Shown here piece by piece: positions 5,118-27,775 of a stretch of 32,598 bases of DNA. A program made the position numbers and the translations under genes. The stretch covers positions 1-32,598 of the forward strand of contig CAMHNQ010000003.1 in NCBI GenBank assembly GCA_946186495.1. Direction: 5' to 3'. Under the pieces are notes generated by a model, which saw only the letters and a list, made by a program, of their open reading frames with translations, had not been told where the DNA came from and ran no database searches. How positions within the stretch are numbered: position 1 is the first letter of the stretch; each line of letters opens with the position of its first letter. Source of the DNA: an uncultured Bacteroidales bacterium. GTDB lineage: Bacteria > Bacteroidota > Bacteroidia > Bacteroidales > WCHB1-69.

Positions 5118-5864
5118 ATGATCAGCAAGAACCGTATCGCACAAATCCGAAAGCTGCACGCGAAGAAGTACCGAGACGAGAGCGGCCTCTTCCTCGTGGA
5201 GGGCTACAAGTGCGTGGAGATGCTCCTCGGCTCAGATTTCGCCGTCGAAGAGGTCATCGCCACGGAGGGTGCGCTGCGCGACAACGGATGGCTGGACGCG
5301 CACGGGGTGACGACGGCTACGGCCGAGGAGATGTCGCGCATCAGCGCCATGCAGACCTCGCCGCAACTGCTCGCCATCGCCCGGCAGAAACGTCCTGACC
5401 CCGACATTCCCGGCGACCGCCCACTCCTCGCCCTCGACCGCATCGCCGACCCCGGTAATCTCGGCACCCTCATCCGCACTGCCGACTGGTTCGACATCCG
5501 CCACATCGTCTGCTCCCCCGACTGCGTGGAACTCTACAACCCGAAGACCATCCAGGCCTCCATGGGCTCTTTCGCGCACGTCAGCGTGCACTACACCCCC
5601 CTGGCCCCATTCCTGCTAAAGGAAAGCTCCCGCCGCCGCGTAATTGGCACGTTCCTGGACGGCGAGGACGTCGGCACGTTCGCGTTCCGGGAGAACGACG
5701 TCGTTGTCATCGGCAACGAGTCGAACGGCATCTCCGGGGAGGTGGCCGCAACGGTCGCGCAACGCATCACCATCCCGTCGCCTGCGAAAAACCGTCCCTC
5801 CGCCGAATCCCTCAACGCCGCCGTGGCCGCCGCCGTGGTCATCTCCCTGTGGCGGCTGCAATAG
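5118..5864 (+). CDS. SpoU/TrmH-family RNA 2'-O-methyltransferase
   Basis: 248 residues. The three SPOUT signatures are present: DRIADPGNLGTLIRTADWF (107-125), VVVIGNESNGIS (195-206) and RITIPSPAKNRPSAESLNAA (216-235). These form the trefoil knot that binds S-adenosylmethionine. The N-terminal part (KKYRDESGLFLVEGYKCVEMLL) is the substrate-binding domain of RlmB/TsnR-like enzymes, which modify a ribose in rRNA or tRNA. The target nucleotide cannot be told from sequence alone. Only 31 bases separate it from the thioesterase gene, so it is probably in the rpsT operon. Confidence 0.9.
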   Translation: MISKNRIAQIRKLHAKKYRDESGLFLVEGYKCVEMLLGSDFAVEEVIATEGALRDNGWLDAHGVTTATAEEMSRISAMQTSPQLLAIARQKRPDPDIPGDRPLLALDRIADPGNLGTLIRTADWFDIRHIVCSPDCVELYNPKTIQASMGSFAHVSVHYTPLAPFLLKESSRRRVIGTFLDGEDVGTFAFRENDVVVIGNESNGISGEVAATVAQRITIPSPAKNRPSAESLNAAVAAAVVISLWRLQ

Positions 5865-5979
5865 CGAATGCCGTGAACCCTTGGCAGCACCGCCCCTCCT
5901 GAAACCGCCGCAACAAAAAAGCGTGATGCGCAAGCCCCGAAATTCTGCGCTTGCCCGAACGGCATACCGAGATTTTTTG

Positions 5980-5987
5980 TATCTTTG
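5980..5987 (+). promoter_or_regulatory. -7 promoter motif TATCTTTG for the DUF6913-dapA pair
   Basis: TATCTTTG lies 27 bases before the ATG at 6015. An upstream in-frame ATG at 5985 falls inside this motif and is therefore excluded as a start. No -33 TTG at the right spacing is seen. Confidence 0.7.
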
Positions 5988-6014
5988 CCCGCATTTAGAA
6001 AAGACCGTCATCCC

Positions 6015-6545
6015 ATGTTTGAGCGAATAAAGAACTATTTCCTGCACAAGCATATCAGCGCGAAAAGGCCCGACAAGACGCGGGAAGTCTGTGCGCTGCA
6101 AGACGCCGCGACCATCGGGGTGCTGTGCGAAATCACCGACGAGGACTCCTACAAGGCCATCTTCAGAATCTTCACCCAGCTACAAGAGACAGGAAAGGTG
6201 ACACACCTCATCGGCTACATCGACGAGAAGTACGTGCCTTTCTACTGCCTGCAGCAGCTCTCGGCCGACTATTTCTGCCGCAAGCAGCTCAACTGGTGCG
6301 GAGAACCCAACTTGGTCCAAGTGCAGGACTTCATCCAGCGCGACTTCGACATACTCCTCGACTTCAGCTACCGCCACCTCGCCCCTGTGGAGGCCATCCT
6401 CGCCACCTCGCGCGCCCGCTTCATCGTCGGCAGCTGCGAAGGCAACCGCGACCTCTACGACCTCTACATCCAGAGCGAGAGCGGCAACTATGAGAAGTTC
6501 CTCGGCGCCGCCTTCAATTACACCCTTAAACTCACCGGAAAATGA
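6015..6545 (+). CDS. DUF6913-like cytoplasmic protein, partner of dapA
   Basis: 176 residues from the ATG at 6015 (MFERIKNYFLHKHISAKRP). An in-frame ATG 30 bases upstream is rejected because it lies within the promoter. There is no signal peptide or membrane segment. The pattern IGVLCEITDEDSYKAI, then HLIGYIDEKYVPFY, FCRKQLNWCGEPN, FDILLDFS and ARFIVGSCEGN resembles the Bacteroidota family DUF6913 as I remember it. That family has no known function but usually sits directly before dapA. Here it overlaps dapA by 4 bases (ATGA), indicating translational coupling and a possible link to lysine/diaminopimelate synthesis. That link is inference from position only. Confidence 0.75.
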   Translation: MFERIKNYFLHKHISAKRPDKTREVCALQDAATIGVLCEITDEDSYKAIFRIFTQLQETGKVTHLIGYIDEKYVPFYCLQQLSADYFCRKQLNWCGEPNLVQVQDFIQRDFDILLDFSYRHLAPVEAILATSRARFIVGSCEGNRDLYDLYIQSESGNYEKFLGAAFNYTLKLTGK

Positions 6546-7429
6546 GAAACGACACACATAACGCCTTCAAAGGCTTAGGAGTGGCTCTCGTCACGCCCTT
6601 CAAAGAGGACGGGAGCATCGATTTCCCGTGCCTCGGACAGTTGGTGGAACGCGTGGCCGCCAACGGGGTCGACTACCTCCTGGCGCTCGGGACCACCAGC
6701 GAGTACCCCACCCTCTCGCCCGACGAGAAGGACGACGTGCTGCGCTGCATCCTCGATGCCAACGCCGGACGCCTGCCCGTGATGGTCGGCCTTGGCGGAC
6801 CCAACACCCAGTTCATGATCCGGAAGCTCGACAGGCTCGCCGCCTTCGACGTCGACGCCATTCTCACGGTCACCCCTTACTACAACAAACCCTCCCAGGC
6901 GGGACTCGTGGCGCACTACAAGGCGTTCACCGCCGCCACCGACATGCCCGTGTTCCTCTACAACGTTCCCGGACGAACCTCCTGCAACCTCGAATGCCCC
7001 ACCACCCTCCGCATTGCCGAAGAATGCCCCAACGTGGCCGGCATCAAGGAGGCCTCCGGCATGATGAAGCAAATCCTCCAGCTCCTCTCCAAACGGCCCG
7101 ACGGATTCCTGGTCATCTCCGGCGATGACCTGCTCACCCTGCCCCTCATGGCCGCAGGCGCCGACGGACTCATCTCCGTCATGGCCAACGCTTTCCCCGC
7201 ACAGGTCGCCGACATGGTACACCACATCATGCACCAGGAACTGGCCGAAGCCCGACGCATCCACCAGAAGCTCGTGCCTCTCACCATCGACTGCTTCAAG
7301 GAGGGCAGCCCTGCCGGCGTCAAAGCCATCATGACCGCACAAGGTTCCATCGAGAACGTCCTACGGCTGCCCCTCGTACCCGTCTCCGACAAACTCCAGC
7401 AGGAGATCCAATTGGCAATCAGGAATTAG
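6542..7429 (+). CDS. dapA: 4-hydroxy-tetrahydrodipicolinate synthase
   Basis: 295 residues, standard for the DapA/NAL family of TIM-barrel class I aldolases. It condenses pyruvate with aspartate semialdehyde in the diaminopimelate/lysine pathway. Visible motifs: GVALVTPF (13-20), LALGTTSEYPTLS (47-59, pyruvate-binding GTT[S]E), VTPYYNKPSQ (110-119, with the relay Tyr), LYNVPGRT (139-146, catalytic Tyr140 and Arg) and AGIKEASG (166-173) with the Schiff-base Lys169. All key residues are intact. Its start overlaps the preceding gene by 4 bases. lysC, the first step of the pathway, is at 23655-24926. Confidence 0.95.
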   Translation: MRNDTHNAFKGLGVALVTPFKEDGSIDFPCLGQLVERVAANGVDYLLALGTTSEYPTLSPDEKDDVLRCILDANAGRLPVMVGLGGPNTQFMIRKLDRLAAFDVDAILTVTPYYNKPSQAGLVAHYKAFTAATDMPVFLYNVPGRTSCNLECPTTLRIAEECPNVAGIKEASGMMKQILQLLSKRPDGFLVISGDDLLTLPLMAAGADGLISVMANAFPAQVADMVHHIMHQELAEARRIHQKLVPLTIDCFKEGSPAGVKAIMTAQGSIENVLRLPLVPVSDKLQQEIQLAIRN

Positions 7430-7457
7430 GAATCCAGGCGCACACGGGGACGCGCCC

Positions 7458-8423
7458 TCAGAACCGTTTCAGTTTGGCCTCCTCAAACGGGTCGAGCGAG
7501 AAAACGTTGTTGCTGTCCACCCTGATCACGAGCAAACCCTCCTCCCGGGCGAATTTGTCCGAATCCCGATCGTAGTTGACCGCTGCAACCGCTGCCAACA
7601 CCTCCTGGCCCGAATACTGCGGGAACAATTCCCTGAATTTCTCCATCTTTTTCTCGAAATGCTTCACCTTCTTCGGGGTGAAATTCGCCTTGACTTCCAC
7701 AGGGATGACGAATCTGTCGTTCCCGAGCAAGGCGTCGATTTCCATCAGACCGTTGGCGGCGGAATCTAACGGACGGATGTTCTTGCCGAGGCTAACCACG
7801 TCGAGACCGCCCTCCTTGAAGACTTTGAACAAGGCTGAACTCGCCAGCCCCTCCACTATGTGCCCGGTGACGCCGAGAAATTCCACCGATACGCGGGTGA
7901 TGGCAGCGTTAACGGCTGCAATGGAAGCCTTTGTCTCAGCACTGAAGTCCGCAAGGGTGGCTTCAAGGTGGGCTTTGCTTTTGGCAAAGGAGGCCTTGTA
8001 TTCTTCGTTTGACCTTTGCGATTCCTTGATACTTTCTTTCAACTCCTGCATATCCTCCTCCCACTGTCGCGTTCTCTCCTGCCACTCTGCACGGCTTTTC
8101 TGACGCTCCTCCTCTCGCTGGCGCGACCACTCATCGAGCTGCGCCCGCCATCTCTTGGCGTCGGCCTCCCGCTCGATAGCATGGAGGCGCATGATCTCGC
8201 GAATCTCCTGCATCTCACGCTCATGGGTGCGCCGAGCCTCTTCGTGCTCATCACGCACAGCCTCCAACTGGGCGCCCCGCTCGCGCACTACCGCTTCCCC
8301 GTCGTCAAGTCTTCGGTTCATCCTCTCGATTGCCTGTTCATTCCTGCTTATCCTTCCGGTGTTCTCCAACACCTTCTGCCTCAACTGAGGCAGGCTTGCT
8401 TCCGCTAACATTGTATTTTCCAT
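7458..8423 (-). CDS. Coiled-coil protein with PD-(D/E)XK nuclease-like C-terminus
   Basis: 321 residues, no signal peptide. Residues ~12-175 are a long highly charged coiled coil rich in Glu, Arg and Gln (for example EEARRTHEREMQEIREIM). Residues ~180-321 form a globular domain containing GLMEIDALLGN followed by FVIPVEVKAN. The arrangement D230-x12-E243-V-K245 fits the catalytic core of PD-(D/E)XK nuclease folds. The overall shape recalls DUF3782-type coiled-coil/nuclease-like proteins of archaea and cyanobacteria. It stands alone, convergent with dapA, with its own promoter. DNA binding or cleavage is a guess from the fold; no partner methylase or toxin/antitoxin gene is adjacent. Confidence 0.75.
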   Translation of the reverse strand: MENTMLAEASLPQLRQKVLENTGRISRNEQAIERMNRRLDDGEAVVRERGAQLEAVRDEHEEARRTHEREMQEIREIMRLHAIEREADAKRWRAQLDEWSRQREEERQKSRAEWQERTRQWEEDMQELKESIKESQRSNEEYKASFAKSKAHLEATLADFSAETKASIAAVNAAITRVSVEFLGVTGHIVEGLASSALFKVFKEGGLDVVSLGKNIRPLDSAANGLMEIDALLGNDRFVIPVEVKANFTPKKVKHFEKKMEKFRELFPQYSGQEVLAAVAAVNYDRDSDKFAREEGLLVIRVDSNNVFSLDPFEEAKLKRF

Positions 8424-8541
8424 ATTGTTTCGAATGGTTTATTGGGGTTTATTTGTGTGCTTCTTCTTAAGTTCACAGGTTGCTTGCCGGAACCCCCTGA
8501 CCCGTTCCCGACCCCACTTCCCGCATCAAGGTTTCCGGAGA

Positions 8542-8549
8542 CAAAGATA
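8542..8549 (-). promoter_or_regulatory. -7 promoter motif TATCTTTG (minus strand)
   Basis: The reverse complement of CAAAGATA. It would give a leader of about 110 bases for the coiled-coil gene starting at 8423. The rest of 8424-8716 is AT-rich, with no convincing gene. Confidence 0.55.
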
Positions 8550-8716
8550 ACACAAAAAACAATACGGAACACAAAAGCCGAAAAAAAATTTTCATCTTGG
8601 AAACCAATGCGTTATAGATATGTGTTGAAATATTTTAAGAATTATTTGTAAATTTTGTATTCATTTTTCGCAGGAAAAACGGACTCGCGCCGCAAACACG
8701 ACGCAACCGCAACACA

Positions 8717-8747
8717 CAAAAAAAAGCCCCGCATAGGCAGGGCTTTT
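8717..8747 (-). terminator. Rho-independent terminator of the three-gene mosaic-protein cluster
   Basis: Read leftward, AAAAGCCC, a 10-base loop, and GGGCTTTT run into a T tract. It lies 25 bases past the stop codon of the last cluster gene. Confidence 0.85.
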
Positions 8748-8771
8748 GATTTTATCACTTAATCGATTTCT

Positions 8772-10223
8772 TTAATTCTCGGGAATAGTGGTAACTTTCG
8801 TGAATGTATCACTACCACAAGAGGCATTCTCTTTATAAGTTAACATTACGGTCAATGTTGCTCCTGGAACCCAAGAAGTCTCAGTATTAAGGTTGATCTC
8901 CCCTTCACCGTTTGGATTAACCGTAATTGAGGTAAAAAACACATAAGTTTCGTTACCTTTAGCAACCTGATACTCTACTTTTTCTACCTTGGAAGCGTTA
9001 TAATTTTTGATAGTGACACGATACAGCTTATCATTGCCTATTTGTTCAATTTTTTCGATAGTCGGGCAGGCATCGACACCGTTCTCTAAATTTTTGATTC
9101 TTTCAACAAGACCGCAGATTTCGTGATTGTCGTCGCCGACAGGGTTCTCCACACAATCCTTGAGGTAATTGTTCTTGTCAAGATAGTAAGCCAGGTAACC
9201 GTTGAACTTCGCAAGCAAATGTTTGTACAAAGTGCTGTCCTGTGCAGACTTGAAATATTCGTAAGCGTAGTCGAATTCATCGATGGTGGTGTTGTCGATG
9301 AAGTACTTCACTGCCTTCCATACGAGGGGCATGTGGTTGAAGACATAGTCGATGGCGTAGTTGGCCACGATGTCGCGGATGGCATCGTGATGCTCGTTCT
9401 CCTGAACGGCCGCAATCACCTCTTTCACGTCGTTGGTGTCAACCTTGCCGATGTAGGCCGCCAGCACGTCCATGGCGTCTTCCTTGTGGTTGATGATGTA
9501 GTTCTTGACGGTGTCCTTCACCGCGCGCTTCACGTCGGCAGGAACGGCGTCCATGGCCGTGTAGAGGTCTTCAGCGGTGGCAAGGCCGAGGAAGTAGAGG
9601 GCCAGGTCCTTCACGACGGGTTTCTGGGTCTTGATGTAGTTGACCAGGGTGTCCTTCATGTAGGGCCAGATGTTGTTGTTGCCTGCGATGGCGGCGAGGA
9701 TGGAGTCGACACTGTTCTTCGTCGTGGTGCTTGCGGAGAGATAGCGGCAGATCTCCTCGGTGGTGAGCTCAACCGGGGCGTTGTCGGCCTGGATGGCGTA
9801 CGGTACAGCCATCACCGGGGTCTCGACCGTGGCGATTTCGGTTCCACCGTCTTTGAAGACGGCTTTCACCACCACATCCTTGCTCCAATCGATGGAGTCG
9901 AATTTTGCGGAAGGGCCGATCACGAAGGAGGCCATGCCGTTGGCCGTGGTCGTGACGTCATTGATGGTCTGGGTGTACAGAGACGTGCCATTGACAACAT
10001 TGTCCAAAATGGTGACTTCGACCGTGAGGGTCTTGTTGATAACCAGGTTCCAGCCCTGGTTATCGCGAACCACTGCCTGGTAGTTGAACTTAGGGCCTAC
10101 CGTGGGAACATCGAGATTTGTACTCTCGTAATCGTAAGGTTGGCCTTGCGGGGGATTCACCTGCGCCATTAAGATGCTCGCGCTGCAGAGGAGCATCACT
10201 AAAAAGGTTAAAATCTTTTTCAT
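8772..10223 (-). CDS. Secreted mosaic protein: Bacteroidota N-domain, helical repeats, C-module
   Basis: 483 residues. Signal peptide 1-21 (MKKILTFLVMLLCSASILMAQ). Residues ~45-146 form a beta-rich domain starting KFNYQAVVRDNQG and ending AVPYAIQA, a domain I recognise at the N-terminus of many FISUMP and adhesin-like Bacteroidota proteins. Residues ~156-356 are all-helical tandem repeats of ~46 residues: units start at DTLVNYIK (191), DTVKNYII (237) and DIVANYAI (284), with a partial unit at ~338. Residues ~366-382 are a short coiled coil. Residues ~386-483 form a beta module starting at CPTIEKI and containing KNYNASKVEKVEY, shared with the neighbouring 461-residue protein. There is no T9SS tail and no lipobox, so the anchoring mode is unknown. 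It is the last gene of a three-gene cluster, 56 bases after its neighbour. Its function is unknown; surface binding or structure is a guess. Confidence 0.8.
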   Translation of the reverse strand: MKKILTFLVMLLCSASILMAQVNPPQGQPYDYESTNLDVPTVGPKFNYQAVVRDNQGWNLVINKTLTVEVTILDNVVNGTSLYTQTINDVTTTANGMASFVIGPSAKFDSIDWSKDVVVKAVFKDGGTEIATVETPVMAVPYAIQADNAPVELTTEEICRYLSASTTTKNSVDSILAAIAGNNNIWPYMKDTLVNYIKTQKPVVKDLALYFLGLATAEDLYTAMDAVPADVKRAVKDTVKNYIINHKEDAMDVLAAYIGKVDTNDVKEVIAAVQENEHHDAIRDIVANYAIDYVFNHMPLVWKAVKYFIDNTTIDEFDYAYEYFKSAQDSTLYKHLLAKFNGYLAYYLDKNNYLKDCVENPVGDDNHEICGLVERIKNLENGVDACPTIEKIEQIGNDKLYRVTIKNYNASKVEKVEYQVAKGNETYVFFTSITVNPNGEGEINLNTETSWVPGATLTVMLTYKENASCGSDTFTKVTTIPEN

Positions 10224-10279
10224 TGTTCTATTGTTTTTATTATTAATTATTATCGTTAGGAATTATGGATAAAAGAGCT

Positions 10280-11665
10280 TTATTTTTCGTATATAGTGAC
10301 GTCCAGATTAAGGACATCGTCAGCACCACATTGAGTTCCACCAGCAAACCGGATTTGGACACTGGCAATGACTTTAGTTACATCTGCGTTGATATAGTTG
10401 GAAGGAACTGCCGCTTCCACATGGGCATCAGTGGAAGTTTCGCTTGTTTGAGGCACAGGACGAACGGTTACGTATGTACCGTCAGGATCTGTTTCGATAA
10501 TTTTGAACTCGACATTGATGTCCGTCACAACACTGGCATCGTAATTGGTGATGTCAAATTCGATGCTTTTTGTCTCCTCTATAGTAGCAACATTTGTGAG
10601 CTCAGGGCAGGTAATAGGATCAGGATCAGGATCAGGATCAGGATCGTTGTCGCCGTTGTCCTCGCATTTGTCAAAAGCCTTGACGATGTCATAGACGCAG
10701 CGCACGCTGAGGCGGTCGTCGTCGAGGCGGTTAGGGGTGAGCGGCACGTCGCAGTAGTAGGCGAGCTGCATCACGCTGTGTGAGCCGTCCTCGCAGTTGT
10801 CGGCGGTCCAGAAGTCGGTCTCGGTGAAGAGGCCCTCGAACTGCTGGGTGGTGCTGTTGAAGAGGCCGGCGGGCATGGCGGAGAAGCCGGTGGCGTTGGT
10901 GTTGGTGAGGCCGTTCCAGAGGGTGTCGGCGCGGAGGTCGGTGGCCGGGATGGCGCGCACGAGGCTCATCTCCTCACCGGAGGGCAGGTGCCAGCCGTCA
11001 GGGCAGATGCCCTGGAGGAAGCCGTCCTCATTGCAGGCGGGTTCGGCGCCGGCAGCCTCGCTCCACGTGTAGAGGAGGCCGAAGGTGAGCGAGTCGGTCA
11101 CCTGGTAGCGGTCGGAGGCGTAGATGCGGCCGGCGGTGTTGTCGCGCAGGTTGCTCTTGAACCAGCAGACGTTGTTGAGGGCAATCACGAGGTAGTCGTT
11201 AGAGACGTTGTCGAGCTTGTTTTCGGGGCACACATAGAGTTTGACCACCTGGAGGGAGTCGTAGTTGAACTCGGCGACGTTGGGGACCTGGAGCTGCACG
11301 AAGCCATGGAGGCCTTCGGCGTCGCAGTCGGTCTCGGTCTGTGCGGTGAGGAGGGTTTTGATGGAGTCCCAGGAGAGGTTGAAGCGACCGTTGCGGTAGC
11401 CTTCGCCGTAGGTGATGACGGCGATGGTGGTGTCGGACACTAACTGCATCTGGGCGATGGAGGCGGAGAGCTCGTAGCCCGCCGCGCCCTGCACGATGGC
11501 GCCGAAGGGCAGGCCGAAGGCGCCGTAGGCCTGTTCGTTTTCGTCACCGGCGATGGTCCCGGTGCTGCCGCCGGGCACGAAGCCGCGGACGGTGTTGACG
11601 GTCTGCGCCGACACGAAGCCCGCGCACAAGACCGTCATCATCAAAATCAAAAGATTCTTTTTCAT
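10280..11665 (-). CDS. Secreted FISUMP-domain protein with Asp-Pro linker and C-module
   Basis: 461 residues. Signal peptide 1-21 (ending GFVSAQ). Residues ~164-324 form a FISUMP-type domain: NNVCWFKSNL (164-173, in the place of the usual WMAENL), LLYTWSEA, ICPDGWHLPSGEEM (220-233), TGFSAMPAGL (259-268), FWTAD and LSVRCVYD. Residues 341-350 are five Asp-Pro dipeptides encoded by a six-base microsatellite. Residues ~352-461 form a C-terminal module (CPELTNV, then ITNYDASVVTDINVEF and QCGADDV) homologous by eye to the end of the 483-residue neighbour. There is no T9SS tail. The gene lies between two mosaic relatives, 45-56 bases apart, and is probably co-transcribed. Its function is unknown. 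Confidence 0.8.
   Translation of the reverse strand: MKKNLLILMMTVLCAGFVSAQTVNTVRGFVPGGSTGTIAGDENEQAYGAFGLPFGAIVQGAAGYELSASIAQMQLVSDTTIAVITYGEGYRNGRFNLSWDSIKTLLTAQTETDCDAEGLHGFVQLQVPNVAEFNYDSLQVVKLYVCPENKLDNVSNDYLVIALNNVCWFKSNLRDNTAGRIYASDRYQVTDSLTFGLLYTWSEAAGAEPACNEDGFLQGICPDGWHLPSGEEMSLVRAIPATDLRADTLWNGLTNTNATGFSAMPAGLFNSTTQQFEGLFTETDFWTADNCEDGSHSVMQLAYYCDVPLTPNRLDDDRLSVRCVYDIVKAFDKCEDNGDNDPDPDPDPDPITCPELTNVATIEETKSIEFDITNYDASVVTDINVEFKIIETDPDGTYVTVRPVPQTSETSTDAHVEAAVPSNYINADVTKVIASVQIRFAGGTQCGADDVLNLDVTIYEK
10617..10645. repeat. In-frame hexanucleotide microsatellite (GGATCA, 4.8 copies)
   Basis: Four perfect GGATCA units plus GGATC encode the Asp-Pro linker of the 461-residue protein on the minus strand. 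Gain or loss of a unit keeps the reading frame, so linker length could vary between strains. Confidence 0.85.
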
Positions 11666-11710
11666 ATCGTTGTTTTTTTTATTATCGATTAATAAAGGTT
11701 AGCACCGGGA

Positions 11711-14700
11711 TTACGGTTCGGGAATGACTTTCACGCAACGGACGGAATAGCCACGATACTTGGCACCACGAGGACTGTTATCGCTGGTGGAATTTGTACT
11801 TACCAAATCGGCATGTCTTTGCACACCCTCCATATCCTCATGGATTTGACGATAATAGGATGTTGGAGTATTGTTAACGTTACCATTCTCTGTGCTGGTC
11901 CAGAAATAAGTCAAGTCATTATAGGTACCCGGGTATTTGTTCAGACCTCTGTATCCGGCAGGCACTGCATTGAAACCGGTCGAAATGGGAGAGGAAGCAC
12001 CCGTCCAAGAACCAGCTTTCATAAGTTTGGCGGCATGACTACCACGCCATCCTTTATTATCACACATGGTGTCAGCAGGAGTCTGATTCGTACCTAATGT
12101 ATCAACATAATATTCCATTTCGCACCATTCGGCGTCTGAGGGAAGATACCAACCTGAAGGACAAACTTCCATGGCCGCATACCAATTATAGTGATATCCC
12201 ATCAGTCCAAGATGCTCAGTGGTAATCTGAATTTCTTGATTACCCGCAACTACTGAACTTATGTCATAATACTCCGCAGATGTTACATCAGCAAGGCTGC
12301 CGGAATTTTGACCTTGTTCAATTGGTTGACCAGCTCCATTCTTGCTGGAGCGCATGTTCTGGGCCATCCAGCATCGGGAACCTATTTTAACAGTGGGATA
12401 ACGGTTACCCATAGCGTCGCGCATGGAGTCCGTGCCGCACACGAATTTGTACTTCACGAGGATGGTGTCGTACTTGTAGCAGACGGTGTCGTTGTTGAAC
12501 ATGACGCGGAACTCGCAGACGATGAGGGAGTCTCTGTCGACGGCCATCCGCAGGGTGTTGCCCTGAGATTGAAGAACATGATTCAACGTATCAGTCCATT
12601 TGTAGTGGATCTCTTCGATAAGGCCGTTGTAGAACCTAGGATCATTCTCGACATCCTTGAGGTAGGTCGTGTCGCCATTTTGAATAATGTAGGAGGCGGC
12701 GGCAAGGGTGATGGTGTCGGTGGAACCGATGCAGAGCGTGTCAGAATGTTGGGTGTCGGGAGTGATGGAGACTTTCGGTCCGAGGAGGGTGTCGCCGTTC
12801 ACGAAAATGGAGTCGCTGCACTCATAGGGTTTATACGTTATCTTGATGGTGTCCTTAACCGTACAGGTTTGTCCCAGGTAAGACATCGAGAGGGTAGCTT
12901 CATAGACGTGGGTGGAGTCCGGCGCGACCTTCAGTATGCTGTCGGACACATCAGGAGCGTCTGTCCAGGAATATTGGATGTCGCCGCTTATACCGTTATC
13001 GGCCATTAGGGTAGAGCAAGCCGCCATGAGGTGCTCAACCCGGTAAGTGCCTGCACTGAGACCACTACAATATTGGCTTGCATTACTTCCAACCTCAAAC
13101 TGGCTTCTGGCCGTAAGTTTGAGGGAGTCGGCGAAGGCATGGTAAACGGTGCCGGGGTCGGCGAGGATCTCGAGTTTGGGTCCGCGGACAGTGATGGTCT
13201 TGCCGGCGGATTTTATTGTATCGCCTTTACATAGCACGAAGGAGTACAATGTGACCGTTCTGGAGCAGTAATTCATACCGAGGGTGTCCTTAAACGTGAA
13301 GTTATCAATGTTGGAAGGAAGGATGTCGGACTTATGCTGGCCGTCTATGTCCCAGTAATCGACGATGAAGCCTGCCTCGAGATTACCATAGTTCACGTCC
13401 ACCGTGCCGGACAACAGGATGCCTTTGTTCTGGGCCAGTTTGGTGGCGCTATTGTAGTCTTCGTTGCCTTCGTTCACTATAAGGGTGACTGTATTCGGGC
13501 ATCTGGGCTCGCTGCTTTGGGTGTAATCGATCGTGAAGGTTGCACTCTTCTGTGCTGATAAGGGGGTACACTTGGTCATCAGGAATGCCTGCACTCTGAT
13601 GATGTCGGCTTTGTTCAATAAGTTGTCGGAAATTTCCGCCTTCATCGAATAGGTGTTTCCATTGGTGTCGATGGTAGCATATATCGTGTCCTTCTTGAAC
13701 TGGGTGCTCGGGTAGGAGAGTTCAAAGAACGCGCTGTCGGAAGGGACATTGAGGGTGTAGGTTTCGGCTTCGGGAATGTTAGTGATTCTGGAAGTAACGG
13801 TTAGCGGACCTCTTCCGGAGTGGGTCTGTGTTCCATTTGTATCCGGAGTTAACAGGTCGGGACACTTGATGAAGTTCGGGTTGTTCTCAAGGTTCTCTAT
13901 TTTTGCTTCGATGTGGCAGATATCGAAATCAGGATCGGTCGAGCATTTCTTGAGATAGCCGTTCTTGTCGAGGTAGGCCTGGACGAGGGCGTCGAGTTCG
14001 GATCTCATGTGGGGGTACAGGTCAGAGGAGTCTGCAGATCTGTGGGTTTTGAAATAGTCGTAGGCGTAGTCGATTTCGTCCACGGTGACGGCGTCGAGGA
14101 ATTTCTTCAGGGCTTTCCATACGAGCTGTTTGTGGTTGGAGAGGTACTTGAGGGTGCTGTCGGCGAGGATGCTGACGATATCGTCGAACTGCGGGTTTTC
14201 GTTGACGGCGTTGAGCACGCGGCGGACGTCGTTGGTGTCGATCTGCCCGATGTAGGCGAGGCCGATTTCCTTGGCGACGTCATAGTTGTTGATGATGTAC
14301 TTCTTGACGGTGTCGACCACAGCGGAGTCGAGCTTGTTGTTGGCCTTGTAGGCCTGGTAGGCGTCTGCCACGTCGTCGGTGTTCACTTTGCCGAGGAAGT
14401 GGAGGATCAGGTTCTTGATGGCGGTGCGGTGAGCCTTGATGTAGTCCACGAGGGTGTCTTGGGAGTATTGGGCGATCTCGTTCCCGTTCGCGAAGAAGGC
14501 TTTGATGACTTGGTTGACGGCTTCCTCATTGATGTCTTTCAGGTAGTTGGTGATGGCCAGGGTGGTCAGCAGGGTGTCGTGGTTGAGGGCGTTCAAGGCA
14601 TAGGGCACGGGGAGCACCTCCATTTCGTCATGGATGCCGTAAGAGGCAATTTCCACCACGATCTTGGAGCCTTTCCAGTTGATCTTGCGGAGGCTGCTGA

Positions 14701-15028
14701 CGGGCAATTTCACCACGTTTGTGTTTGTTTCGGGACCCTGGTAGCTTTCGTCCACGATGATGAGGGAGAGCATGCCGTTCATGTTGGTCTTGCCTGTGAA
14801 GGTCATGCCTGTGAACTCTGCTTCGTCGGTGGTACCGGTAATTGACAGTCTACCTTCAACGTTAGCGTTGTACACCAGGTCATTCGGGGCGAACTCGCCC
14901 ACTGTGGCGTTTGTGTTGTTTCTCACCACCAGCTGGTAGGTGAGTTTCGGGTGCTGGTCCGACTGCTGGGCCAGGATCGTGCTCACTGTCACCAGGAGCA
15001 TCGCGAAAAGGGTTAAAATCTTTTTCAT
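11711..15028 (-). CDS. Large secreted mosaic protein: helical repeats, beta-rich middle, C-terminal FISUMP domain
   Basis: 1105 residues. Signal peptide 1-20 (MKKILTLFAMLLVTVSTILA). Residues ~28-148 form a beta domain (KLTYQLVVRNNTN to VLPVPYALNA) homologous to that of the 483-residue protein. Residues ~160-362 form the same helical repeat region (units DTLVDYIK at 191 and DTVKKYII at 239, then LKYLSNHK and YLDKNGYLKKC). Residues ~395-865 are beta-rich with several Cys-Pro motifs and repeated Ig/PKD-like patterns. Residues ~868-1105 form a complete FISUMP domain: VKIGSRCWMAQNM, YHYNWYAAMEVCPSGWYLPS, STGFNAVPAGYRG, TYFWTSTENG and GYSVRCVK. There is no T9SS tail or lipobox. It is the first gene of the leftward cluster. 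A surface or extracellular role is likely; the ligand is unknown. Confidence 0.82.
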   Translation of the reverse strand: MKKILTLFAMLLVTVSTILAQQSDQHPKLTYQLVVRNNTNATVGEFAPNDLVYNANVEGRLSITGTTDEAEFTGMTFTGKTNMNGMLSLIIVDESYQGPETNTNVVKLPVSSLRKINWKGSKIVVEIASYGIHDEMEVLPVPYALNALNHDTLLTTLAITNYLKDINEEAVNQVIKAFFANGNEIAQYSQDTLVDYIKAHRTAIKNLILHFLGKVNTDDVADAYQAYKANNKLDSAVVDTVKKYIINNYDVAKEIGLAYIGQIDTNDVRRVLNAVNENPQFDDIVSILADSTLKYLSNHKQLVWKALKKFLDAVTVDEIDYAYDYFKTHRSADSSDLYPHMRSELDALVQAYLDKNGYLKKCSTDPDFDICHIEAKIENLENNPNFIKCPDLLTPDTNGTQTHSGRGPLTVTSRITNIPEAETYTLNVPSDSAFFELSYPSTQFKKDTIYATIDTNGNTYSMKAEISDNLLNKADIIRVQAFLMTKCTPLSAQKSATFTIDYTQSSEPRCPNTVTLIVNEGNEDYNSATKLAQNKGILLSGTVDVNYGNLEAGFIVDYWDIDGQHKSDILPSNIDNFTFKDTLGMNYCSRTVTLYSFVLCKGDTIKSAGKTITVRGPKLEILADPGTVYHAFADSLKLTARSQFEVGSNASQYCSGLSAGTYRVEHLMAACSTLMADNGISGDIQYSWTDAPDVSDSILKVAPDSTHVYEATLSMSYLGQTCTVKDTIKITYKPYECSDSIFVNGDTLLGPKVSITPDTQHSDTLCIGSTDTITLAAASYIIQNGDTTYLKDVENDPRFYNGLIEEIHYKWTDTLNHVLQSQGNTLRMAVDRDSLIVCEFRVMFNNDTVCYKYDTILVKYKFVCGTDSMRDAMGNRYPTVKIGSRCWMAQNMRSSKNGAGQPIEQGQNSGSLADVTSAEYYDISSVVAGNQEIQITTEHLGLMGYHYNWYAAMEVCPSGWYLPSDAEWCEMEYYVDTLGTNQTPADTMCDNKGWRGSHAAKLMKAGSWTGASSPISTGFNAVPAGYRGLNKYPGTYNDLTYFWTSTENGNVNNTPTSYYRQIHEDMEGVQRHADLVSTNSTSDNSPRGAKYRGYSVRCVKVIPEP

Positions 15029-26461: not shown

Positions 26462-27160
26462 CTAATAATACCCTTTCCCGTGACAAAGCTGACATGTTAC
26501 ATGATAATGTGAGCACGAGACCGTTCTATTGCATTCGTTACAATATTTCGTGTCCAACCCAAAACACACGCCATCATCGCGATCTTCTCTACCTGACCCA
26601 TGGCAGCGGGCACAAGTCCTCGTGGCCGTGGTGGTCGTGGCAGGTTGAGAAGTAGATGACGAACTGGATGAAGTGGTAGTCGTTTGCGGATAGGTTGTGA
26701 CAGGATAAGTAGTTGCGGGTACTGGAGGAATGAAAGGTTGGGAACTTGGTGTGGTCGTTGGTGCGGGCTTTCGGATTAAAGAGCAGGTGGTTACCCCTGC
26801 CGGTGGCGTGGCGCGTTTATAGACATACACATTTCCGTCCATCGTTTTGATGTTGAAACTACTGTAATCGCTTTTGAATAGCAACATCGTGTTTTCCCCA
26901 TAGTAAGTGGGTCCAAGGTAGATAAGGTAACCATTCTCAGTGCGATTGTACTTGATTTTTCCGTGATTGACGGAAAAACCATCCTTGTCCGATTCGTAAC
27001 AGCCATCTTTGATAATGGTAATGAACTGACCACCTGACACATTCTCGCTAATCACCCCGTTTACCTTTTTCTTAGTTAATTTATAATAATAGGTGGTCTG
27101 CGCAATAGAAGTAAAACAAAACAACAGCAACGTGCTAAATAAGAGTATGTTCTTTTTCAT
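26462..27160 (-). CDS. Secreted protein with Ser/Thr/Pro linker and DnaJ-type zinc-finger tail
   Basis: 232 residues. Signal peptide 1-20 (FCFTSIAQ). Residues ~22-115 form a beta-rich domain (TYYYKLTKKKVNGV; GGQFITIIKDGCYESDKDGFSV; YLGPTYYGENTMLL) of a type I have seen in Bacteroidota secreted proteins, with no known role. Residues ~130-185 are a low-complexity Ser/Thr/Pro linker. The tail carries two CxxCxGxG units (CARCHGSG and CQLCHGKG) plus further Cys and His, like the zinc-binding domain of DnaJ; finding this on an exported protein is unusual. It starts 3 bases after the 203-residue gene ends, so they form an operon. Confidence 0.75.
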   Translation of the reverse strand: MKKNILLFSTLLLFCFTSIAQTTYYYKLTKKKVNGVISENVSGGQFITIIKDGCYESDKDGFSVNHGKIKYNRTENGYLIYLGPTYYGENTMLLFKSDYSSFNIKTMDGNVYVYKRATPPAGVTTCSLIRKPAPTTTPSSQPFIPPVPATTYPVTTYPQTTTTSSSSSSTSQPATTTTATRTCARCHGSGREDRDDGVCFGLDTKYCNECNRTVSCSHYHVTCQLCHGKGYY

Positions 27161-27163
27161 AGT

Positions 27164-27775
27164 TTAGTCGAGGAAATCGAGGTTGGGCTTCAGGGAATTA
27201 GGATCTATCCGTTTAAAATAATGACGTTCATTATGTTTGTCACTCCATAGTATTAATTCTGATTTGTCCAAACTAAAAGAAAAAAAATTGAATTTAGAAT
27301 CACCCCACTCTTCTCCACGGCTGGTATGATATGTTGCTTTATATGTGAATTTTGCACTTGTTGAAAAAGGTTGGTAATATTTATGGGCACCTGGAATTAC
27401 ATGGTAGTTCCACTGAGAATTAGGATTCAAAGGCTTTTCTTCAGATACTTTTCGGTTTACATAACAATAATATCTTTGTTTTAGAAGATTTAATAGAGCG
27501 TTTGGATCTTCAGCTAATTGCGCACTGAGTATATTTTTTTCATCTGCATGGAAAAGAAGCTCAACTAATCTACCATCATGGAAATAGACGCATCTAATTA
27601 GTCCTTTCCAAAGACCATTAGGCTCCTTAGTTACGACACCATCTGTTCCCACAGTTTTTTCATACAGATAAAAATAAACTTCATCACTATTGCTGAATTG
27701 TGCGCTTGTTTTGTTTGTGAATCCTGCCAAGACAACGAAAAGCAGGACAACCGTTTGAATGTAAAAGTTTTTCAT
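27164..27775 (-). CDS. Secreted protein of unknown function
   Basis: 203 residues. Signal peptide ~1-25 (LLFVVLAGFTNKTSAQ). The mature part (VYFYLYEKTVGTDGVVTKE; VYFHDGRLVELLF; FSLDKSELILWSDKHNERHYFKRID) looks like a distant, longer relative of the beta domain in the next gene: both open with a Y-x-Y strand, a basic or charged turn and a G-V motif. That similarity is by eye and weak. It is AT-richer than most of the window. No clear -7 motif is seen in the upstream 70 bases. The function is not recognised. Confidence 0.7.
   Translation of the reverse strand: MKNFYIQTVVLLFVVLAGFTNKTSAQFSNSDEVYFYLYEKTVGTDGVVTKEPNGLWKGLIRCVYFHDGRLVELLFHADEKNILSAQLAEDPNALLNLLKQRYYCYVNRKVSEEKPLNPNSQWNYHVIPGAHKYYQPFSTSAKFTYKATYHTSRGEEWGDSKFNFFSFSLDKSELILWSDKHNERHYFKRIDPNSLKPNLDFLD

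What the first reader, a model, noticed from the sequence alone, without database searches (positions are those of the whole stretch)
8772..15028. Three-gene cluster of module-sharing secreted proteins
Three adjacent leftward genes encode exported proteins that share modules in different combinations. The 1105- and 483-residue proteins share an N-terminal beta domain and helical repeats. The 1105- and 461-residue proteins share a FISUMP domain. The 461- and 483-residue proteins share a C-terminal module (NYDASVV / NYNASKV). None has a T9SS tail, although other proteins in the same window do. This looks like a locus that evolves by duplication and domain shuffling. A surface-display or recognition system is possible but unproven.
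Basis: partly seen in the sequence, partly recalled or inferred. Interest (0 to 1): 0.7.

Follow-up and report, generated by a model that had tools for sequence, protein, structure and literature searches.

The report
Three shuffling secreted modular proteins
Three neighbouring genes of an uncultured Bacteroidales bacterium encode exported proteins built from shared, swappable modules, probably cell-surface binding proteins that change fast between related species; surface location and binding are not yet shown.

Summary
Three leftward genes (A 1105, B 461, C 483 aa) at the stated coordinates share modules pairwise: A/C an N-terminal beta domain plus helical repeats (E 3e-62), A/B a FISUMP domain (both over the Pfam cut-off), B/C a C-terminal tail (weak pairwise; E 5e-6 by profile). 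None has a T9SS tail.

New here: (1) the beta domain is a distant relative of the N-terminal domain of Bdellovibrio "mosaic adhesive trimer" (MAT) fibres, below that family's cut-off. (2) The helical module matches no family that I accept and is nearly confined to one genus: 16 of 40 genomes, each with a B-type gene beside it. (3) In 13 of those 16 the cluster lies by feoAB, nrdG/nrdD or both (7); the window copy sits elsewhere. (4) It diverges faster than the flanks (dN/dS 0.14-0.92 against 0.02-0.09), and in one close genome pair the beta domain of one gene is replaced. (5) Beta proteins elsewhere often carry FISUMP fused or just upstream.

Best reading: a lineage-specific, recombining operon of surface recognition/adhesion proteins. 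Surface display, ligand and assembly are inferred. New variant of a known kind.

The parts
11711..15028 (-). Gene A, 1105 aa: signal peptide, beta domain, helical repeats, Ig/FN3-like region, C-terminal FISUMP
14564..14968 (-). A beta domain (aa 21-155)
   Evidence: profile made from A5
13865..14563 (-). A helical-repeat domain (aa 156-388), 3 units found by the unit profile
13175..13864 (-). A two CP-type modules (aa 389-618), matched to A-type genes of relatives only; no significant match to the B or C tails
11714..12412 (-). A FISUMP domain (aa 873-1105)
10280..11665 (-). Gene B, 461 aa: signal peptide, B_N domain, FISUMP, D/P linker, beta-rich tail
11216..11602 (-). B_N domain (aa 22-150), shared by the B-type genes of relatives (name given here)
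10676..11215 (-). B FISUMP domain (aa 151-330)
10283..10615 (-). B tail module (aa 351-461, CP...NYDASVV)
   Evidence: low-confidence model
8772..10223 (-). Gene C, 483 aa: signal peptide, beta domain, helical repeats, FN3-like tail
9768..10106 (-). C beta domain (aa 40-152)
   Evidence: ten-residue blocks from 41 to 140 have mean pLDDT 62-88; weak Bdello_MAT_N match
9066..9767 (-). C helical-repeat domain (aa 153-386), 3 units found by the unit profile
8775..9065 (-). C tail module (aa 387-483, CP...NYNASKV), FN3-like in the model
8722..8747 (-). Terminator-like hairpin just after gene C (11 pairs, T tail); no terminator-like site is listed in the A-B or B-C gaps
   Evidence: pattern match; 6 found against 8.8 expected in the region

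Best explanation
A, B and C form an operon of exported, modular cell-surface proteins for recognition or adhesion. Sec exports them (signal peptides: seen). The beta domain, a distant cousin of the MAT N-terminal domain, probably holds the protein at the outer surface (inferred from MAT fibres). The helical repeats act as a spacer or stalk (inferred). The FN3-like and FISUMP modules are the distal binding parts (inferred; that FISUMP is C-type-lectin-like is taken from its reported similarity to DUF1566 and from recall, not from a fold made here). FISUMP is either fused to a beta protein or made as the separate B protein, which suggests that the two kinds of protein work together. Duplication, fast divergence and, in one genome pair, replacement of a single module (seen) let related species carry different versions, as expected for proteins that meet variable ligands such as plant-fibre glycans, other cells or phages.
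For: Module homologies. Beta domain matches Bdello_MAT_N at E <= 0.1 in 18 of 29 members, best E 4.7e-8, while no other NCBIfam model hits more than 1 member; the same model matches 71 of 104 family genomes at E <= 0.001, best 2.9e-14, and 0 of 14 control genomes. In MAT proteins a ~130 aa beta domain directly after the signal peptide is thought to sit near the cell surface (PMC10769870, passages). All 16 same-genus genomes with the helical module have a B-type gene next to a helical gene. Of 15 beta-protein loci from 15 other genomes (L031-L045), 9 have a FISUMP gene directly upstream, 5 have FISUMP fused to the matched protein and 2 more to a neighbouring beta protein; 13 have at least one of these, 11 if the two neighbours are not counted. 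dN/dS 0.14-0.92 in 18 cluster comparisons against 0.02-0.09 in 10 comparisons of the flanking FeoAB, NrdG and NrdD; 4 of the 18 (G008-G039) have no control from the same pair. C-tail identity 28% against 52% for beta and for helical (G000-G031), and 44% against 76% and 81% (G030-G011). Replacement of the beta domain in G041/G032. A FISUMP protein is listed in the membrane proteome of F. succinogenes with peptide counts on two celluloses and none on glucose (PMC4619616, passages); FISUMP and the related DUF1566 occur in variable proteins of diversity-generating retroelements (PMC4159848, passages).
Against: No T9SS tail and no lipobox, so how they would cross or attach to the outer membrane is unknown. 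No dN/dS above 1; several dS values are saturated, and the highest ratio (0.92) rests on very few changes. The tail is not always the most variable part: in G041-G032 gene C it is the most conserved (96%) and beta the least (66%). The MAT link is below the curated cut-off (0 of 104 genomes over 60 bits), and the listed matches cover roughly the first half to two thirds of that model. None of 15 S74-type fibre loci of the family carries the beta domain, though some of those stretches do not reach the start of the protein. No ligand data.
Confidence: 0.55

Rival explanations
1. Structural envelope or scaffold proteins (matrix or S-layer-like parts, or non-variable fibre-attachment scaffolds) that diverge fast because constraint is loose, not because of recognition.
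For: dN/dS stays below 1 in all 18 cluster comparisons. Many FISUMP domains per genome (27 here), as in Fibrobacter (54 in S85; PMC4704652, one passage). No ligand known.
Against: The tail of C diverges most in 2 of 3 pairs looked at, and one module is replaced between near-identical flanks, which loose constraint alone does not explain.
Confidence: 0.25
2. Periplasmic proteins that stay inside the outer membrane, for instance envelope stress or partner-binding proteins.
For: SPI-type signal peptide only; no T9SS tail or lipobox in any of the three, while two other window proteins have T9SS tails.
Against: Modular architecture with FISUMP, relation of the beta domain to MAT surface fibres (PMC10769870, passages), fast divergence.
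Confidence: 0.15
3. Targets of a diversity-generating retroelement that mutates the FISUMP domain.
For: FISUMP and DUF1566 domains are known in variable proteins of such elements (PMC4159848, passages).
Against: No reverse transcriptase over the cut-off in the window genome, which is 92% complete. 8 of 40 genus genomes have one over the cut-off, none on a contig that carries the cluster. No search for a template repeat was made.
Confidence: 0.03
4. Phage tail-fibre genes of a prophage or remnant.
For: MAT fibres look phage-like (PMC10769870, passages).
Against: No PHROG match for A, B or C at E <= 0.1; no relative of C in viral contigs, in a scan that reaches close relatives only; signal peptides; house-keeping neighbours.
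Confidence: 0.02

Closest known systems
Bdellovibrio mosaic adhesive trimer (MAT) fibre proteins (NF053851, Bdello_MAT_N)
   Same: Signal peptide, then a ~100-130 aa beta domain with detectable sequence similarity, then variable C-terminal modules; a multi-member, chimeric family (PMC10769870, passages).
   Different: Below the family cut-off; the middle is predicted helical instead of a trimeric beta-prism or beta-helix; no S74 domain; FISUMP and FN3-like ends; trimer formation untested.
FISUMP (Fib_succ_major, PF09603/TIGR02145) proteins
   Same: A and B carry the domain, over the Pfam and NCBIfam cut-offs; many copies per genome as in Fibrobacter (PMC4704652, one passage).
   Different: Here joined to, or paired with, a nearly genus-restricted helical module and a B_N domain without Pfam match.
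DGR variable proteins with C-type-lectin-like ends (DUF1566/FISUMP)
   Same: Modular exported protein with such a domain (PMC4159848, passages).
   Different: No reverse transcriptase linked to the cluster; change by divergence and module replacement instead.
T9SS-sorted modular surface proteins of Bacteroidota
   Same: Exported, beta-rich modules; the same genome encodes T9SS-tailed proteins.
   Different: A, B and C have no T9SS C-terminal signal.

Membership tests
FISUMP / Fib_succ_major domain | Profile match over curated cut-off | tested here: met
   A 105.8 and B 55.7 bits against 33.9; TIGR02145 75.7 and 73.7 against 41.65
FISUMP / Fib_succ_major domain | C-type-lectin-type fold | tested here: inconclusive
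   B model has no confidence there; no accepted PDB sequence match; 1 of 6 members weakly matches Lcl_C, E 0.0021
MAT superfamily | Beta domain after the signal peptide, over the NF053851 cut-off of 60 bits | tested here: not met
   C beta domain 18.1 bits; 0 of 104 genomes over the cut-off although 71 match at E <= 0.001
MAT superfamily | Trimeric beta-prism or beta-helix shaft | tested here: inconclusive
   C middle is predicted helical at low confidence; oligomer state not tested
MAT superfamily | C-terminal S74 chaperone-protease (13 of 21 MATs, so not in all) | tested here: not met
   No S74 match in the window genome; 0 of 15 S74 loci of the family carry the beta domain
Diversity-generating retroelement cassette | Linked reverse transcriptase | tested here: not met
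Type IX secretion cargo | Por_Secre_tail or other T9SS C-terminal signal known to Pfam and NCBIfam | tested here: not met
   no match at E <= 1 in A, B or C
FN3-like domain (C tail) | FN3 beta-sandwich fold | tested here: inconclusive

The most novel reading that the evidence does not exclude
A two-part, recombining bacterial recognition system: MAT-type fibres (A, C) whose binding end is supplied either in the same chain or by a separately encoded FISUMP partner (B), with modules swapped between species as units so that each lineage shows its own repertoire to prey, kin, phage or plant substrate.
Probability: 0.2. Interest if true: 0.75.

Novelty: new variant of a known kind. Interest (0 to 1): 0.5.

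Why it matters
It ties a common but nameless N-terminal domain of secreted proteins in this Bacteroidales family to the surface fibres with which Bdellovibrio recognises prey, and it points to a locus where single modules are replaced between close relatives. If the proteins are surface binders, the locus offers a natural series of variant modules for finding out what FISUMP domains bind; no ligand of this domain was found in the papers seen here, although it is present in dozens of copies in Fibrobacter.

Tried and rejected
Diversity-generating retroelement: no reverse transcriptase over the cut-off in the window genome and none on cluster contigs in the genus. Template repeats were not searched for.

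Phage origin: no PHROG hit, no viral-contig relative in a scan for close relatives.

S74 fibre link: S74 matches exist in 28 of 104 family genomes, but none of the 15 loci fetched carries the beta domain at E < 0.01; for L110 no ORF was printed, and in some others (such as L100, L104, L105) the ORF runs off the stretch. This speaks against a simple MAT reading.

Helical module: Fis DNA-binding-protein matches over ~50 residues in the PDB search (E 2e-4 with A4; 0.004 with A1) and scattered Pfam matches, at most 3 of 26 members per family; taken as chance helical similarity, which is my judgement. NCBIfam was run only on the whole A and C proteins. Model confidence there is too low (mostly pLDDT 30-45) for a fold statement.

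Donor of the replaced beta domain in G041/G032: none among the loci held.

Dropped rows: G005-G040 NrdD (a shadow ORF was compared), G008-G039 NrdD (not available), and G005-G040 A and B (dS undefined).

Literature: 'FISUMP' with 'Bacteroid' 0 papers, 'FISUMP domain' 0, 'mosaic adhesive trimer' 3 papers by listing, one of them read in passages, where 'bacteroid' occurs 0 times, Fib_succ_major 4, 'Fibrobacter succinogenes major paralogous' 2, a four-term search on rumen, feoB and adhesin 0, a four-term search on retroelements and the C-type lectin fold 10, seen as listing only. No paper on this cluster turned up in those searches.

Full report

The modules. Helical module: a repeat unit of about 37 residues in the profile, 46-56 residues apart in A and C, 2-5 matches (E < 0.05) per protein in 31 family members, ending in a pair of conserved cysteines. 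I accept no Pfam or PDB family for it. With profile A1 it was found in 2 of 393 genomes of the order, the window genome itself and one of the same genus; with the broader profile A4 in 17 of 104 family genomes, 16 of them of the same genus, out of 40 genus genomes held. Twelve of those 16 genomes had given rows to A4; G004, G029, G032 and G033 had not. Beta domain: 68 of 104 family genomes match gene C, at least 51 of them without a helical module. It matches the Bdellovibrio MAT N-terminal domain in 18 of 29 members with no competing family, and the MAT model itself finds 71 of 104 genomes but never passes its cut-off. [quoted passage not shown] FISUMP: 27 matches in the window genome.

The cluster in relatives. 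All 16 same-genus genomes with the helical module have a B-type gene (B_N + FISUMP) next to a beta-helical gene; the number of helical genes per cluster runs from 1 to 3, the weakest B_N match is 4e-5 (G004), and in G029, G032 and G033 the cluster is cut by contig ends. Eleven genomes have feoAB and nine have nrdG/nrdD within about 5 kb of the cluster, seven have both, and three (the window genome, G004, G029) have neither; other ORFs can lie between. In the window genome feoAB (C8:50771-53254) and nrdD (C8:72945-75017) lie on another contig, with a B-type gene beside nrdG. So the window cluster is at a different place from the usual one, by transposition or, which I think less likely, by a binning or assembly error. 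G034 has feoAB and nrdG about 1 kb apart with no cluster between them. The one named relative is 'uncultured Bacteroidales bacterium isolate RUG182' (L070), whose contig has the length of G031:C50; that RUG stands for rumen genomes is recalled.

A wider pair. Outside the helical clusters, beta proteins and FISUMP often go together. Of 15 loci from 15 other genomes (L031-L045), 9 have a FISUMP gene directly upstream on the same strand, 5 have FISUMP fused to the matched protein (L033, L036, L039, L040, L044), 2 have it fused to a neighbouring beta protein (L032, L035); 13 have at least one of these, or 11 without the two neighbours; L041 and L045 have none, and several loci are short or cut by contig ends. 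Fusion in one place and adjacency in another suggests that the two domains act together (established reasoning, not a test).

How it evolves. The tree separates A-type from C-type genes, each with one gene of the same four genomes, and gives similar paralogue sets in three other groups of genomes: duplications older than the species within each group, followed by mostly vertical descent. Divergence is fast: dN/dS 0.14-0.92 in 18 comparisons of cluster genes, 0.02-0.09 in 10 of FeoAB, NrdG and NrdD. The G008-G039 pair (4 of the 18) has no control; one control row was dropped and two cluster rows are undefined. The C tail varies most in G000-G031 and G030-G011 but least in G041-G032; the signal-peptide codons vary least in G000-G031, also at synonymous sites (conserved islands at gene starts also). 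G041 and G032 are nearly identical over most of the cluster, but in gene C the beta domain falls to 59-83% in six successive 90-base windows, while most other windows are at 90-100%; B has smaller dips to 81-90%. Their fourth gene differs at 1% of synonymous sites where FeoAB differs at 13% and NrdD at 32%. This fits exchange of genes and modules, unless one of the two assemblies is chimeric.

Mechanism. Seen: export signals, modular homology, co-inheritance, fast divergence, one module replacement. Inferred: surface anchoring through the beta domain (by analogy with MAT), stalk role of the helices, binding by FN3-like and FISUMP ends, cooperation of B with A and C. Literature hints: a FISUMP protein in the membrane proteome of F. 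succinogenes on cellulose (PMC4619616, passages), FISUMP listed under cellulose-binding proteins in Fibrobacteres (PMC4704652, one passage), FISUMP/DUF1566 in variable proteins of retroelements (PMC4159848, passages).

Verdict. Observation confirmed; evolutionary interpretation supported; recognition function likely but unproven. Not filed as MAT, DGR or T9SS cargo, because a defining feature of each was tested and not met.

Noticed in passing
window 26462-27160 and 27164-27775: Two small neighbouring proteins with signal-peptide-like starts on the minus strand; the first ends in CxxC repeats that look like a DnaJ-type zinc finger, unusual for an exported protein (reading of the sequence and recall only).
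   Followed up: no
window 7458-8423; L047 5736-6476; L063 14456-15301: Coiled-coil protein just downstream of gene C (nuclease-like C-terminus by recall only); relatives at 28-30% identity lie just downstream of gene C in G005 and near another beta/FISUMP giant gene in the window genome.
   Followed up: partly
codons 1-21 of genes A, B, C and of their G031 counterparts: The signal-peptide coding ends are islands of conservation even at synonymous sites (pS 0.10-0.26 against 0.61-0.88 in the other modules, G000-G031), which could be a translation-start constraint or a recombination anchor.
   Followed up: partly
L062 (G000:C7:47000-63000) 5292-13434: A second cluster of beta and FISUMP proteins in the window genome, with a small gene between two of them whose sequence resembles a T9SS-tailed window protein.
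   Followed up: no
L065 1577-5227 (G000:C94): Another B-type + beta-protein pair in the window genome, without helical module.
   Followed up: partly
L055 528-3013 (G039) and L088 2799-5262 (G034): FeoAB is split over two frames in these two genomes, either decay or assembly error.
   Followed up: no
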